A stretch of 47,031 nt of DNA from Nitrospiria bacterium (lineage in GTDB: Bacteria > Nitrospirota > Nitrospiria > JACQBZ01): NCBI GenBank assembly GCA_035517655.1, contig DATIYJ010000066.1, positions 1 to 47,031 on the forward strand. Reading direction: 5' to 3'. Positions 6,380-11,834 of the stretch are shown in pieces (the stretch's first letter is position 1; every line of letters starts with the position of its first letter). Below the pieces are notes generated by a model. That model saw nothing but the letters and a program-made list of their open reading frames with translations, did not search any database and was not told where the DNA came from. The position numbers and the translations under genes were made by a program.

Positions 6380-9097
6380 ATGACCGACCTCAGCCCCCTC
6401 ATGAAGCAGTACCGCGAAACCAAGGAGCGTTACAAGGACGCGATCCTGTTTTTCCGCGTGGGCGATTTCTACGAGATGTTCTTCGAGGACGCCGTCGTCG
6501 CCTCGAAGATCCTCGAGATCGCGCTGACGTCCCGGGACAAATCGAAGGAGGATTCCGTCCCCCTCTGCGGCGTTCCGTACCACGCCGCCTCGGCCTATAT
6601 CGCCAAGCTGATCCGGGCCGGAATGAGCGTGGCGGTCTGCGATCAGGTGGAGGATCCCCGTCAGGCCAAGGGGCTGGTCCGGCGCGAGGTGGTGAGGGTC
6701 GTCACGCCGGGCACGCTGACCGAGCCGGAGCTCCTGGCCTCCGATGAAAACAACTACCTCGCCGCCGTCGTTCATTCCGAGGCGGGCTGCGGCCTGGCCT
6801 TCGTCGACCTGTCGACCGGGGAATTCCGCCTGACCCAGTTCGACGGCGCGGACGCGGAAGAAGAGCTTCGGTCCGAGCTGGCCCGGCTGGAGCCGAAGGA
6901 AATTCTGGTCGCCGAATCCGACCTCCCCCGTATGGAAACGTCGTTGACCCGACACCCGATCGGCCCATCCGCCGCGCCGCGGCTCTGCCGGTTTACGGAT
7001 GCTGCGTTTGATCCCGGAACGGCCCGCCGGACTCTCCTGGATCACTTCCGTCTCCAGTCCCTCGCCGGGTTCGAGTGCGAGGATATCCCGACGGCCGCGA
7101 CGGCCGCCGGCGCGCTGCTGCGCTACCTTCAGGAGACCCAGCTCACGGCGCTGGGACATTTGAACCAACTCAAACGATACCGGAAAAGCGATCACCTCGT
7201 TCTGGACGCGACCGCGCAGAGGAATCTGGAGCTCACCCGTCGCTTGAGCGACCTTCCTGACCGGCAGGCAGGCGGACGGACGGAAGGCTCGCTGCTCTGG
7301 GCGCTGGACCGGACCCTCACCCCGATGGGCGCGCGTCTTCTCCGGAACTGGCTGCTCCGGCCGCTCATGGACCTCGGGACGATCCGGGCGAGGCAGTCCG
7401 CGATCGAGACGTTTTTGGGCGACACGACGCGGCGCGGCCGCATCCGGTCGATTCTAAAGCGGATCGCCGACCTGGAACGGATCATCGGGCGGGTCTCGCT
7501 CGGCACCGCCCACGGCCGCGACCTGGTTCAATTGAAGAACTCGATCGAGCCTCTTCCCTCCATGTACAAATGCCTGACGGAAGCGGACCCGTCCGCTTCG
7601 GATGCGGCCGACCCAAGCCTTCTGGAATCGATCCGCGCCGGGTGGGACGACCTGAGCGACCTCCATGCCCGCATCCGGCAGACGCTCGTGGACGATCCGC
7701 CGCCCGGTCTTCATGACGGCGGCTTGATCCGGGACGGCGTCGATCCGGCGCTGGACGAGTTGAACGCGGCCGCCCGAGACGGAAAGCGCTGGATCTCGGC
7801 GCTGGAGGCCAAGGAGCGGGAACGCAGCGGAATCGAGTCGCTCAAAATCCGTTACAACCAGGTGTTCGGCTTCTATATCGAGGTGACGAAGACGCATCTT
7901 TCGCGCGTGCCGCCGGATTTTTACCGGAAGCAGACACTGGTCAACGCCGAACGCTTCATCACGCCCGAGCTCAAGGACCTGGAGACGAAAGTGCTCGGCG
8001 CGGAGGAGCAGGGCCGGGTGCTCGAACACGAAATCTTCGAACGGCTCCGGGCGGAGACGGCCGCGGCCGCGTCGCGCGTCCAGGCCGCGGCCCGGTCGGT
8101 CGCGCTGCTGGACGTTCTGTCCGCGTTGGCCGAGGTCGCGGCCGCGGAGCATTACGTCAAGCCGACGGTGGACGACGGCGACGAGATCCGCATCGTCGAC
8201 GGCCGGCATCCGATGCTGGAGCGGATGCTGCCGGGCGGATCCCGCTTCGTTCCGAACGACGCGACGCTGGATGGGCGGGACAACCGTCTGCTGATCATCA
8301 CCGGCCCCAACATGGCCGGGAAATCCACCTATATGCGCCAGGTGGCCTTGATCGTGATCCTGGCCCAGGCGGGCGGCTTCGTGCCGGCCTCGGAAGCCCG
8401 GATCGGCCGGGTGGACCGGATCTTCACCCGGATCGGGGCGTCGGACGATCTGATGGGGGGGCAGAGCACCTTCATGGTCGAGATGACCGAGACCGCCGCC
8501 ATCCTGCACCAGTCCACCGCCCGCAGCCTGATCCTGCTCGACGAGATCGGGCGGGGCACCAGCACGTTCGACGGACTCAGCATCGCCTGGGCCGTGGCCG
8601 AATACCTTCACGACCCCGACCGGTCGGGCGCGCGGACGCTCTTCGCCACGCATTACCATCAGCTCACCGAACTGGCTTTGACTTTCCCGGGTATAAAGAA
8701 CTACAATATCGCCGTTCGCGAATGGAACGACGAGATCATCTTCCTTCGCAAAATCGTGGCGGGCGGAACCGACCGCAGTTACGGCATCCAGGTGGCCCGC
8801 CTGGCCGGTCTTCCCCCGGAGGTGATTCGCCGCGCCCATGAAATTCTGGCCAACCTGGAAAGCGGGGAATTCAACGAACTCGGCCAACCCCGCCTGGCCT
8901 CGACTCCCCGCCTGCCCGCCGAGGCCGGAGCGCAAGGCGCGGACGCGGACCAGTTCGGACTGTTTACACCGGAAGTTCACCCCGTCATTCGGGAACTCCG
9001 GAAAACGGACCCGGACCGTCTCACACCGCTGGAGGCGCTCAACCTCCTTCATGAGCTGAAAAAGAAAGCCGAGGGTCCCATTCAAGAGAACCGCTAA
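6380..9097 (+). CDS. mutS: DNA mismatch repair protein MutS
   Basis: 905 residues, slightly longer than E. coli MutS (853). The mismatch-contacting Phe-x-Glu is F30-Y31-E32 in VGDFYEMFFEDA. The connector, lever and clamp follow. The ABC ATPase carries Walker A GPNMAGKSTYMRQ (about 641), the FTRIGASDDLMGGQSTFMVEM signature, and Walker B LILLDEIGRGTSTFDG. The C-terminal end DRLTPLEALNLLHELK is the dimer or MutL-interacting type tail. An extra stretch at residues 292-300 (LPDRQAGGR), just before the conserved EGSLLWALDRT, is the translation of a palindromic repeat (7254-7276). The linker near 840-855 (PRLASTPRLPAEAG) is also lineage-specific. Confidence 0.97.
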   Translation: MTDLSPLMKQYRETKERYKDAILFFRVGDFYEMFFEDAVVASKILEIALTSRDKSKEDSVPLCGVPYHAASAYIAKLIRAGMSVAVCDQVEDPRQAKGLVRREVVRVVTPGTLTEPELLASDENNYLAAVVHSEAGCGLAFVDLSTGEFRLTQFDGADAEEELRSELARLEPKEILVAESDLPRMETSLTRHPIGPSAAPRLCRFTDAAFDPGTARRTLLDHFRLQSLAGFECEDIPTAATAAGALLRYLQETQLTALGHLNQLKRYRKSDHLVLDATAQRNLELTRRLSDLPDRQAGGRTEGSLLWALDRTLTPMGARLLRNWLLRPLMDLGTIRARQSAIETFLGDTTRRGRIRSILKRIADLERIIGRVSLGTAHGRDLVQLKNSIEPLPSMYKCLTEADPSASDAADPSLLESIRAGWDDLSDLHARIRQTLVDDPPPGLHDGGLIRDGVDPALDELNAAARDGKRWISALEAKERERSGIESLKIRYNQVFGFYIEVTKTHLSRVPPDFYRKQTLVNAERFITPELKDLETKVLGAEEQGRVLEHEIFERLRAETAAAASRVQAAARSVALLDVLSALAEVAAAEHYVKPTVDDGDEIRIVDGRHPMLERMLPGGSRFVPNDATLDGRDNRLLIITGPNMAGKSTYMRQVALIVILAQAGGFVPASEARIGRVDRIFTRIGASDDLMGGQSTFMVEMTETAAILHQSTARSLILLDEIGRGTSTFDGLSIAWAVAEYLHDPDRSGARTLFATHYHQLTELALTFPGIKNYNIAVREWNDEIIFLRKIVAGGTDRSYGIQVARLAGLPPEVIRRAHEILANLESGEFNELGQPRLASTPRLPAEAGAQGADADQFGLFTPEVHPVIRELRKTDPDRLTPLEALNLLHELKKKAEGPIQENR
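7254..7276. repeat. CTGCCGG-type repeat translated in frame inside mutS
   Basis: CCTGACCGGCAGGCAGGCGG reads LPDRQAGG in mutS. The same unit reads LPDG in udg (4622-4640) and LPDRRA at the end of recJ. It falls in a loop of the core domain that is shorter in other MutS proteins. Confidence 0.55.
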
Positions 9098-9116
9098 ACC
9101 GGAGGACCAAAAAACG

Positions 9117-10529
9117 ATGTCCGAAAACAACCGGGTCAACCTCGTCATCATCGGAGCCGGCCGGGGAGGCCGCGCGCTCATCGAGCTCTTGTTCCAGGAT
9201 CCCACCGTCGAGATCGTCGGCATCGCCGACCTCGATCCGAAGGCCCCCGGCATCGTGCTGGCCAAACGCCTGAAGATCCGCTGCACGTCCGACTACCGGA
9301 GGCTCTTGAAGCGCCGCAAGGTCGATCTCATCATGGACGTGACCGGGGATCCCGCGGTCGGAGCGGACATCGCGAAGATCGCCCCCACCGCCGAGATCAT
9401 CGGCGGACACAGCGCCCGCTTCATGTGGGAGATGGTCGAGGCCCGGATCAAGAGCCGCGAAGAAATCGAACGGCTGCTGATCGAGTATCAGTCCCTCTAC
9501 GAGCTCGGGCTGAAGTTGACGGCCAGCGAGAATCCCGAGAAGCTCTACCACACGATCGTCGACTACGCGACCGGCCTGACGAACACGCCGGCCGGCAGCC
9601 TCACCATTTTCGAGGAGAAACAGGGCACGATGTCCCTCGCGGCCGTCAAAGGCGTCACGAAGCGGTTTTCCAACAAGAACCGGTGGAAGGTCCGTCAAGG
9701 CGGCCTGACCAGCCATATCCTGAACCAGGATGTGCCGCTGGCCGTCCAGGATGTCAAGCGACACCCGAAGTTCGACAACCCCATCATGGTCCGGGAAGGC
9801 ATTCGCTCCCTGATCGCCTCCCCGCTCAAAACCGAGGGGCGGATCGTGGGCATCCTGTATGTCGACGACTTCAAACCGCGGCAGTTCACCACCCGCGAGG
9901 TCTCGCTTTTGTCCCTCCTATCCACCTTCGCCGCGATGGCGATCGAAAAGACGAAACTCCTGGAGAGCACCCGGCAGTTGGCCATCACGGATGAATTGAC
10001 CGGGCTTTACAACCACCGTCATTTCCGTCAACAACTGAGCCTCGAAGTCAATCGCGCCGACCGCTACCACCGTTCGCTCTCGCTCATGATGATCGACATC
10101 GATTACTTTAAAAACTACAACGACACCAACGGTCATCTCAAGGGCAACGAGGTGTTGAAGGATTTGGGGAAAATTTTGAAAGAGATCAGCCGGGAGGTGG
10201 ATATCGTCGCCCGCTACGGGGGCGAGGAATTTACGATCATCATGCCGGAAACGACGCGGCGGCGGGCGTTGATTCTCTCCGAGCGGCTCCGAAGGCGGAT
10301 CGCGTTCCATAAATTCGAGAACGCCCGCAGCCAGCCGAACAAGAGACTGACCGTCAGCATCGGCCTGGCGTCCTACCCGGAGTGCGCGGCGAACGCCTTC
10401 GACCTCATCGCGGAGGCCGACAAGGCGCTGTACGAGGCCAAACGCGCCGGCCGGAATACCGTTTGTGTTTCCACCCGAAAATTGAGGATGACCGCCCAGG
10501 GCCGCGTGCCGGTTTTGAAGACGGGATAA
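9117..10529 (+). CDS. Diguanylate cyclase with Rossmann-like, GAF and GGDEF domains
   Basis: 470 residues. The N-terminal domain (about 5-115) is a dinucleotide-binding-like Rossmann fold: VNLVIIGAGRGGRALIELL with the glycine motif GAGRGG, the strand-end acid GIADLD, and MDVTGDPAVG. A short helix leads to a GAF domain (about 145-295) and then a GGDEF domain (about 305-455) beginning ITDELTGLYNHRHF. The active site is GGEEF (about 368-372), so cyclic-di-GMP synthesis is expected. The product-inhibition I-site RxxD is present (REVD, five residues before GGEEF). The protein has no membrane segment. A redox or nucleotide signal sensed by the Rossmann part is an inference. It is last in the plus-strand run and convergent with the M16 gene. 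Confidence 0.88.
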   Translation: MSENNRVNLVIIGAGRGGRALIELLFQDPTVEIVGIADLDPKAPGIVLAKRLKIRCTSDYRRLLKRRKVDLIMDVTGDPAVGADIAKIAPTAEIIGGHSARFMWEMVEARIKSREEIERLLIEYQSLYELGLKLTASENPEKLYHTIVDYATGLTNTPAGSLTIFEEKQGTMSLAAVKGVTKRFSNKNRWKVRQGGLTSHILNQDVPLAVQDVKRHPKFDNPIMVREGIRSLIASPLKTEGRIVGILYVDDFKPRQFTTREVSLLSLLSTFAAMAIEKTKLLESTRQLAITDELTGLYNHRHFRQQLSLEVNRADRYHRSLSLMMIDIDYFKNYNDTNGHLKGNEVLKDLGKILKEISREVDIVARYGGEEFTIIMPETTRRRALILSERLRRRIAFHKFENARSQPNKRLTVSIGLASYPECAANAFDLIAEADKALYEAKRAGRNTVCVSTRKLRMTAQGRVPVLKTG

Positions 10530-10541
10530 GACGGGGGGAGC

Positions 10542-11834
10542 TCAGGAGCCGGCCAGGAAGGCCTTAAGCGGCCGGGCCTTCGCCCCGGGGCCCAGCACGG
10601 TCAGGGAAAGTTTCCGTCGATCGAACAGCAGATCGCCCAGCCGCCGGACCTGCCGTCTTGAAACCTGGTTGATCTCGTGCAGCGTCTCTTCCAACGAGAA
10701 GTGCCTTCCGAAGTAGATTTCATCCTTGGCCAGGCGGCTCATCCGGCTGTTGGTGCTTTCCAAATTGAGCAGGATGCCGCCTTTCATCTGATTGACGGCG
10801 CGCTGGAGCTCGTCGCGGCTCACGCCCCGCTCCCGCAGCTTTTCAAGTTCCCGAAGCGTGAGTTGAACGACCTGCCGGACGGCCTTCGGACTGGACGCCG
10901 CGTAGACCGTCATCATCCCGGTATCCTGAAAGCCGATGTGATGCGAATAAATCGAATAGACCAGGCCCCGTTTTTCCCGGACTTCCTGGAAGAGGCGCGA
11001 GCTCATTCCCCCTCCCAGCAGCACGTTCAGCGCATAGATCCCGTAGCGGTCCCGATGGTTGAGCGGCAAGCCCGGGAAGCCCAGACAGAGATGCGCCTGC
11101 TCCAGTTTCTTGGGACGGACATAGAGGCCGCCGGAGGCCGCGGGCGGACGGCGGAACACCCCCGCCCCCGGACGGTCCGATCGACGGGCCCGCGCGCCGA
11201 ACGGCCGGAACAAGCGATCGAGTTGTCGGATCAGGGCGGATCGGTTGAACCGTCCGGCGGCCGAAATGACGATCCGCTCCGGACGGTACTTCCGGTTCAG
11301 AAAATCCAGAATCTGTCGGCGGGTGATGGACCGGAGGATGTCGGCTCGGCCGAGAATCGGCCGGCCGAGCGGGCTCCCGCTCCAGACGTTTGCGGTATGC
11401 AGATCGTGGATCAGGTCCTCGGGATCGTCCTCGACCATCTTGATCTCCTCGAGGACGACCCGCTTCTCCCGCTCGATCTCGACGGGCCGGAAGACGGAAT
11501 GACGGAAGAGGTCCGCGAGGAGGTTGACCGCCTTCGGAAGGTGCTCGTCGATCACATTGGCGTAAAACGCGGTGGTCTCGCGGGAGGTGAAGGCGTTGAG
11601 CTCGCCGCCCAGGCCGTCCATCTCCTGGGCGATCTGCCGGGCCGAGCGGCGATGCGTGCCTTTGAAGAACATGTGCTCGGCAAAGTGGGAAAGGCCGGCC
11701 TCGTCGACCGTCTCGTCGCGGGACCCCACCTCGACCCAGATCCCCAACGAGACCGATTTCACGAAGGGGATCTCTTCCGTGACGACCCGGATCCCGTTGT
11801 CCAGGACCTCTTTGTGAAACAGCCGGACGGGCAT
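10542..11834 (-). CDS. M16-family zinc metallopeptidase
   Basis: 430 residues with the inverted zinc motif HFAEHMFFKGT (HxxEH, about 47-51) and the downstream Glu in RETTAFYANV...EEIKMVEDDP. This is the single-chain processing-peptidase-like form found beside pnp in many bacteria. It starts 12 bases after the pnp stop with no obvious ribosome site of its own, suggesting coupling. The C-terminal inactive-type M16 domain (GLPLNHRDRYGIYALNVLLGGGMSSRLFQEVREKRGLVYS) is complete. It is the last gene of the minus-strand translation/RNA cluster. Substrates are unknown. It carries no signal peptide, so it probably acts in the cytoplasm. Confidence 0.92.
   Translation of the reverse strand: MPVRLFHKEVLDNGIRVVTEEIPFVKSVSLGIWVEVGSRDETVDEAGLSHFAEHMFFKGTHRRSARQIAQEMDGLGGELNAFTSRETTAFYANVIDEHLPKAVNLLADLFRHSVFRPVEIEREKRVVLEEIKMVEDDPEDLIHDLHTANVWSGSPLGRPILGRADILRSITRRQILDFLNRKYRPERIVISAAGRFNRSALIRQLDRLFRPFGARARRSDRPGAGVFRRPPAASGGLYVRPKKLEQAHLCLGFPGLPLNHRDRYGIYALNVLLGGGMSSRLFQEVREKRGLVYSIYSHHIGFQDTGMMTVYAASSPKAVRQVVQLTLRELEKLRERGVSRDELQRAVNQMKGGILLNLESTNSRMSRLAKDEIYFGRHFSLEETLHEINQVSRRQVRRLGDLLFDRRKLSLTVLGPGAKARPLKAFLAGS

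What the first reader, a model, noticed from the sequence alone, without database searches (positions are those of the whole stretch)
9117..10529. Diguanylate cyclase with a dinucleotide-binding-like domain
The N-terminus keeps a GAGRGG nucleotide-binding loop, a strand-end Asp and a TGDPAVG segment as in oxidoreductases, but no catalytic domain follows; GAF and an active GGEEF domain do. It may read NAD(H) redox state and translate it into cyclic-di-GMP, which would suit a chemolithotroph with a variable electron supply.
Basis: partly seen in the sequence, partly recalled or inferred. Interest (0 to 1): 0.52.

Follow-up and report, generated by a model that had tools for sequence, protein, structure and literature searches.

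The report
Shared NAD-type sensor module on cyclase
The start of this cyclic-di-GMP enzyme looks like a small NAD-binding domain that many bacteria have plugged into almost every kind of signalling protein, which suggests a widespread, so far unnamed module for reading the cell's redox or central-carbon state.

Summary
ORF 9117-10529 (+) encodes a Rossmann domain (residues 1-96), a long helix (97-138), a GAF domain and a GGDEF domain with intact GGEEF and RxxD motifs; no oxidoreductase catalytic domain follows. The Rossmann part belongs to a distinct ~115-residue family without a Pfam or NCBIfam model of its own, found in Nitrospirota, Bacillota and Pseudomonadota and fused to histidine kinases, hybrid kinases, sigma-54 activators, chemotaxis signalling domains, GGDEF and GGDEF-EAL. 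The dinucleotide-site residues are the most conserved (101 non-redundant members); the Gfo/Idh/MocA EKP motif is absent. Genome context points to redox/C4 metabolism: in 9 of 9 Nitrospirota sigma-54 versions the gene follows malate dehydrogenase, and in 7 of 8 it precedes a NuoF-like NADH dehydrogenase gene; in Bacillota 30 of 44 sigma-54-type loci precede fumarase, with a -24/-12 motif in 29 of 29 gaps scanned. None of 98 relatives has Rex over its cut-off. Best reading: an NAD(H)-redox input module, here driving c-di-GMP synthesis. Ligand binding is inferred, not shown; a C4 acid or another ligand remains possible.

The parts
9117..10529 (+). ORF, 470 aa: Rossmann - helix - GAF - GGDEF
9117..9404 (+). 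Rossmann-type input domain, residues 1-96
   Evidence: Pfam GFO_IDH_MocA 26.9 bits on the N-terminus alone; AlphaFold2 pLDDT 90.2 for residues 1-140; fold matches to NAD enzymes and Rex
9153..9170 (+). Gly-rich loop GAGRGG, residues 13-18
   Evidence: G13 101/101, G15 94/101, G18 94/101 of non-redundant members
9228..9230 (+). Asp38 at the end of strand 2 (acid expected to hold the adenosine ribose)
   Evidence: D in 92 and E in 8 of 101 members
9243..9251 (+). APG loop after strand 2, residues 43-45
   Evidence: A 88, P 81, G 84 of 101
9336..9350 (+). DVTGD at the end of strand 4, residues 74-78
   Evidence: T76 96/101, G77 91/101
9405..9530 (+). long helix, residues 97-138, from the Rossmann domain to the GAF domain
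   Evidence: secondary structure of the model
9528..9947 (+). GAF domain, residues 138-277
   Evidence: Pfam GAF_2 1.4e-16
9981..10457 (+). GGDEF diguanylate cyclase domain, residues 289-447
   Evidence: Pfam GGDEF 9.1e-49
10191..10202 (+). RxxD (REVD) product-inhibition motif, residues 359-362
   Evidence: motif scan, read in the sequence
10218..10232 (+). GGEEF active-site motif, residues 368-372
   Evidence: motif scan, read in the sequence
6380..9097 (+). mutS-like ORF directly upstream, 19 bases away; same neighbour in L016 and L124
   Evidence: the name MutS is my reading of the sequence

Best explanation
The N-terminal domain is a stripped-down dinucleotide-binding Rossmann domain that serves as a soluble sensory input module. 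It most likely binds NAD(H) and passes the bound state through the long helix after its last strand (residues 97-138) to whatever output is fused behind it. In this protein the parts behind it are a GAF domain, possibly with a second ligand, and a diguanylate cyclase with intact active-site and product-inhibition motifs. The cell would thus set c-di-GMP synthesis by its NADH/NAD+ state or the closely tied flux through malate and fumarate. Shown here: domain order, fold prediction, conserved dinucleotide site, loss of the EKP catalytic motif, fusion of the same module to many outputs, and context of the sigma-54 versions. Inferred: that NAD(H) is the ligand, that the helix transmits the signal, and which redox form switches the cyclase on.
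For: Fold: AlphaFold2 pLDDT 90.2. Foldseek best matches are NAD enzymes (1nvm_B, E 9.5e-6); VIA-align gives NAD-bound GenD2 (6nor_B Z 12.8, rmsd 1.8, 93 aligned), acetaldehyde dehydrogenases Z 10.9-12.6, and Rex (3wg9_D Z 10.6, rmsd 2.0, 89 aligned; 7wb3_A Z 10.5, rmsd 2.4, 90 aligned). Sequence profile against PDB: acetaldehyde dehydrogenase 1e-5, Rex 5zz5 2.6e-5. Site conservation in 101 non-redundant members: strict GxGxxG 90, acid at the end of strand 2 in 100, T76 in 96; EKP in 0. Modularity: 168 distinct domain sequences fused to kinases, hybrid kinases, sigma-54 activators, MCP signalling, GGDEF, GGDEF-EAL, or alone. Context: malate dehydrogenase directly upstream of 9 of 9 Nitrospirota sigma-54 versions, NuoF-like gene downstream in 7 of 8 with a -24/-12 motif of at most 1 mismatch in 6 of 8; fumarase downstream in 30 of 44 Bacillota loci and succinyl-CoA ligase next in 6 more; -24/-12 motif in 29 of 29 regulator-fumA gaps scanned. 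No Rex over its cut-off in 98 relatives (control 6 of 14), and the own genome's best Rex match is this very domain.
Against: No ligand was seen or modelled. The context fits C4-dicarboxylates or general energy state nearly as well as NAD(H). The window's own gene sits after mutS, which says nothing about redox. The 12 loci of the chemotaxis-type version examined (L218-L229) have none of the queried TCA genes nearby. 8 of 44 Bacillota sigma-54-type loci have neither fumA nor sucCD downstream. L160 lacks the NuoF-like gene, and L160 and L163 lack a good -24/-12 motif. Bacillota sigma-54 versions also carry a PAS domain that could be the real sensor. The alignment behind the model is shallow (20 rows), and the full-length model is poor outside the N-domain (mean pLDDT 50.6).
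Confidence: 0.6

Rival explanations
1. The Rossmann cleft binds another ligand: a C4-dicarboxylate, an adenylate, CoA or another nucleotide. The module then reports central-carbon or energy status rather than NAD redox state.
For: The sigma-54 versions sit by fumarase, succinyl-CoA ligase, malic enzyme and malate dehydrogenase, whose substrates are C4 acids; a weak CoA_binding match occurs in two members; Rossmann folds bind many ligands.
Against: GxGxxG plus an acid at the end of strand 2 is the usual NAD pattern (established knowledge) and is kept in nearly all members; the Nitrospirota versions sit before a NuoF-like NADH dehydrogenase gene.
Confidence: 0.22
2. The domain is a vestigial scaffold used only for dimerisation; GAF, PAS or other partners do the sensing.
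For: In this protein and many others a GAF or PAS domain follows.
Against: The conserved positions lie in the cofactor loops, not only in the core. Many versions have no other recognised input domain, e.g. R-HisKA, R-HisKA_3, R-sigma54, R-MCP and R-GGDEF, and stand-alone copies exist.
Confidence: 0.13
3. The domain still catalyses a hydride transfer, i.e. the protein is a bifunctional oxidoreductase.
For: The closest folds are dehydrogenases.
Against: No substrate domain follows; the EKP motif of Gfo/Idh/MocA enzymes is absent in 101 of 101 members.
Confidence: 0.03

Closest known systems
Rex redox-sensing repressor (NADH/NAD+ sensor)
   Same: Rossmann domain with the same glycine loop and acid after strand 2; second-best PDB family by sequence profile; Z 10.6 over 89 residues
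   Different: Rex has an N-terminal winged-helix DNA-binding domain (recalled) and represses genes directly; here the Rossmann domain comes first and is fused to GAF-GGDEF, kinases, sigma-54 activators or MCP domains
Gfo/Idh/MocA oxidoreductases (Pfam PF01408)
   Same: Pfam's best match to the N-domain; NAD-binding Rossmann half
   Different: No EKP motif, no C-terminal substrate domain; distinct conserved APG, DVTG and A..(F/L)(M/L) segments
Acylating acetaldehyde dehydrogenase N-domain (1nvm_B)
   Same: Top Foldseek and profile match
   Different: The enzyme goes on with a catalytic domain; none here
Diguanylate cyclases with soluble GAF or PAS inputs
   Same: GAF-GGDEF part with GGEEF and RxxD
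   Different: An extra N-terminal Rossmann input module
Regulator gene at the Pelotomaculum fumarase / mmc cluster
   Same: The R-PAS-sigma54 genes lie directly upstream of fumA-fumB-sucC-sucD; PMC6046458 (passages seen) places fumarase and succinyl-CoA synthase in the mmc cluster PTH_1356-1369. I recall the name MmcZ for a PAS-type regulator there, but no call confirmed it
   Different: Sigma-54 activator output instead of a cyclase

Membership tests
Diguanylate cyclase (GGDEF) | GGDEF domain over Pfam cut-off with GG(D/E)EF motif | tested here: met
   165.8 bits against 23.8; GGEEF
Diguanylate cyclase (GGDEF) | c-di-GMP synthesis | not testable with these tools
   needs an enzyme assay
Gfo/Idh/MocA oxidoreductase | N-terminal NAD-binding Rossmann domain | tested here: met
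   26.9 bits against 24 for the N-terminus alone, 23.8 for the whole protein; fold
Gfo/Idh/MocA oxidoreductase | EKP motif with the catalytic lysine after strand 5 | tested here: not met
   0 of 101 family members; the window has IIGGHSARF there. That this motif holds the catalytic lysine is recalled
Gfo/Idh/MocA oxidoreductase | C-terminal substrate/catalytic domain | tested here: not met
   GAF and GGDEF follow instead
Rex | Rossmann NADH-binding domain | tested here: inconclusive
   structural and profile similarity; NADH binding itself untested
Rex | N-terminal winged-helix DNA-binding domain | tested here: not met
   the ORF starts at the Rossmann domain
Rex | NCBIfam Rex model over cut-off | tested here: not met
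   24.1 bits against 138
NAD(H)-sensing protein | binding of NAD(H) | not testable with these tools
   needs a binding assay

The most novel reading that the evidence does not exclude
A general NAD(H)-redox input domain of bacteria, comparable in role to PAS or GAF, plugs into two-component, c-di-GMP, chemotaxis and sigma-54 outputs, and stands in for Rex in Nitrospirota; this protein is its c-di-GMP branch.
Probability: 0.5. Interest if true: 0.85.

Novelty: new variant of a known kind. Interest (0 to 1): 0.7.

Why it matters
Direct NAD(H) sensing in bacteria is best known from one repressor family, Rex (recalled). If this module binds NAD(H), redox state can be wired straight into c-di-GMP, phosphorelays, chemotaxis and sigma-54 transcription in three phyla, including nitrifiers (Nitrospira) and propionate-oxidising syntrophs (Pelotomaculum), whose energy budgets are tight. 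It gives a clear, cheap test: one 115-residue domain, many fused read-outs.

Tried and rejected
Full-length AlphaFold2 model: only about residues 1-100 were reliable (mean pLDDT 50.6), so nothing is concluded about the GAF-GGDEF arrangement. A promoter for the window gene: no sigma-70 site found in 8900-10700; sigma-54 pattern matches in the window are no more than chance (2 found, 3.9 expected). A sigma-54 site upstream of mdh in Nitrospirota: none convincing in 9 loci; it lies downstream of the regulator instead. mutS linkage as a family trait: found in L016 and L124 only, of 19 loci searched, which include some genes twice and some short flanks. Defence link: no PADLOC match.

Not every profile match counts as a member. 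L034-L044 are ordinary oxidoreductases by my reading of length and EKP-type motif; they score at most 44 bits and fell below the 58-bit threshold before the counts. The 254 of 395 used E <= 1e-8 and may include such enzymes among the weak hits. Searches with few or no hits: phylum of L042, 0 of 201 at 1e-15, with no positive control in that phylum; the six genomes behind L034, L035, L037, L040, L041 and L042, 0 of 6; order of Marinobacterium, 1 of 194.

Literature: the ten text searches found no description of this module in the open-licence PMC library; for their hits I saw the listing and the starts of abstracts only, except as follows. PMC6615313 (section 5 and passages) lists the N-terminal domains of 431 Clostridiales sigma-54 activators and names no NAD-binding one. 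PMC6046458: passages only. Subscription papers are not covered.

Full report
Observation. The ORF at 9117-10529 (+) is real and has the anatomy described. Residues 13-18 are GAGRGG, Asp38 ends strand 2, TGDPAVG is at 76-82. GAF (138-277) and GGDEF (289-447) follow. The cyclase has GGEEF (368-372) and REVD five residues before it, so both the active-site and product-inhibition motifs are intact.

Fold. AlphaFold2 on the N-terminal 140 residues with 20 sequences gave pLDDT 90.2: strands 7-12, 31-37, 71-74, 93-95 with helices between, then one helix from 97 to 138. Foldseek and VIA-align place it among NAD-dependent Rossmann enzymes and Rex.

A module, not a one-off. The own genome has one further good copy, 55% identical, on a HisKA_3 histidine kinase followed by a NarL-type response regulator (the regulator type is my reading of the sequence). 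A scan of genome contigs returned 31 loci, of which L014-L033 carry the same domain and L034-L044 look like ordinary oxidoreductases. A 115-position profile (A2) finds it in 254 of 395 Nitrospirota genomes at E <= 1e-8 (its listing, which appears ordered by kinship, shows one same-class genome without a match), in 52 of 113 genomes of the class of Pelotomaculum at 1e-12, in 108 of 398 of its phylum and in 90 of 398 of the phylum of a Paraburkholderia, both at 1e-15, but in 0 of 201 genomes of the phylum of L042.

Outputs. Pfam scans of representatives and a phmmer classification of all 168 distinct domain sequences held at that point give: HisKA/HATPase kinase 38, PAS-sigma54 29 (and PAS-PAS-sigma54 1), MCP signalling 26, HisKA_3 kinase 12 plus 1 cut, sigma54 8 plus 1 cut, GAF-GGDEF 7, GGDEF without a recognised middle domain 6, stand-alone 6 plus 1 cut, receiver-first 2, PAS only 2, GAF-GGDEF-EAL 1, PAS-GGDEF 1, kinase-receiver 1, and 25 long GAF/PAS-kinase-receiver-GGDEF hybrids, 10 of them cut by the locus end. 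The sample is not even: it follows what the searches fetched. A quick tree of 101 non-redundant domains needs 17 label changes over 8 groups, where 7 is the least possible. The label 'other' there includes cut proteins and half of the forks are unresolved, so repeated fusion is likely but not counted exactly.

The site. In the 101 non-redundant members (<70% identity), G13 is kept in 101, A49 in 100, T76 in 96, G15 and G18 in 94, D38 in 92 with Glu in 8 more, G77 in 91. Strict GxGxxG occurs in 90 and an acid at the strand-2 end in 100. The EKP motif of Gfo/Idh/MocA enzymes occurs in none. A Gly-rich loop with an acid after strand 2 is the classical NAD, rather than NADP, pattern (established knowledge). 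The most conserved residues are thus those of a cofactor site.

Context in Nitrospirota. All nine sigma-54 versions found have a malate dehydrogenase gene directly upstream on the same strand (named by NCBIfam and Pfam in one case, the rest by similarity to it). Of the eight with downstream sequence, seven are followed by a NuoF-like gene (Complex1_51K and NADH_4Fe-4S domains; NuoF model 1e-141, below its equivalog cut-off). Six of eight have a -24/-12 motif with at most one mismatch downstream of the regulator stop.

Context in Bacillota. The R-PAS-sigma54 gene lies upstream of fumA in 19 of 20 fetched loci of the first sample (L198-L217; L201 the exception), in L230, L232 and L233, in L145, and in 7 of 20 of the second sample (L281-L300, identified by length and GAFTGA motif; L299 lacks GAFTGA): 30 of 44. 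Six more of the second sample are followed by sucC-sucD, and seven by neither. By my reading of the sequences, five of those seven precede FAD-dependent oxidoreductase genes. A -24/-12 motif with 0-2 mismatches lies in all 29 regulator-fumA gaps scanned, 20 of them with at most 1, each at shuffle frequency 0.035 or less (the loci are related, so they are not independent). In the HGW-Firmicutes-8 genome a version without the AAA+ domain precedes fumA, fumB and malic enzyme. Twelve loci of the MCP version show none of these genes, which serves as an internal control and also means that the link is seen for the sigma-54 branch only.

Rex. No Rex over cut-off in 98 relatives, while the control rings in 6 of 14 genomes; the own genome's only, weak match is the window domain itself. 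So a redox sensor of Rex type was not found where this module is common. That is suggestive, not proof.

Mechanism. Most likely the domain binds NAD(H); closure or opening of the cleft shifts the helix 97-138, which in a dimer would form a parallel coil and set the pairing of the output domains. For the cyclase this means pairing of two GGDEF domains. The GAF domain may add a second signal. The direction of the response cannot be told. Ligand identity and signal transmission are inferred.

Standing. As a kind, this is a new combination and apparently an undescribed input family (no dedicated Pfam or NCBIfam model; text searches listed under Tried and rejected). Automated annotation may already label single members as NAD-binding, since PF01408 exceeds its cut-off in several. 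The claim of novelty concerns the family and its shared role, and is limited by the open-licence library.

Noticed in passing
L008:1387-3214 (own genome, contig C6): The only other good copy of the domain in the genome is fused to a HisKA_3 histidine kinase with an overlapping NarL-like response regulator; a 68-70% identical regulator follows the domain in L153 and L157.
   Followed up: partly
L218-L229: Soluble ~225-295-residue proteins made of the Rossmann domain and an MCP signalling domain only (Pfam on five of the twelve): candidate cytoplasmic redox chemoreceptors in Bacillota.
   Followed up: partly
L275:4746-6195: Stand-alone copy in a Pseudomonadota genome directly before what reads like a CRP/FNR-type regulator, with cytochrome-oxidase assembly-like genes nearby (names are my reading of the sequence).
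   Followed up: no
L286, L291, L292, L299, L300: R-PAS-sigma54-type genes followed by FAD-dependent amino-acid-oxidase-like genes, with a -24/-12 motif of 1-2 mismatches behind the regulator in all five (gene names by reading).
   Followed up: no
L125, L131, L267: About 1000-1180-residue proteins with the domain, GAF, with or without PAS, kinase, two receivers and GGDEF; my motif scan found no canonical GG(D/E)EF in these long hybrids.
   Followed up: partly
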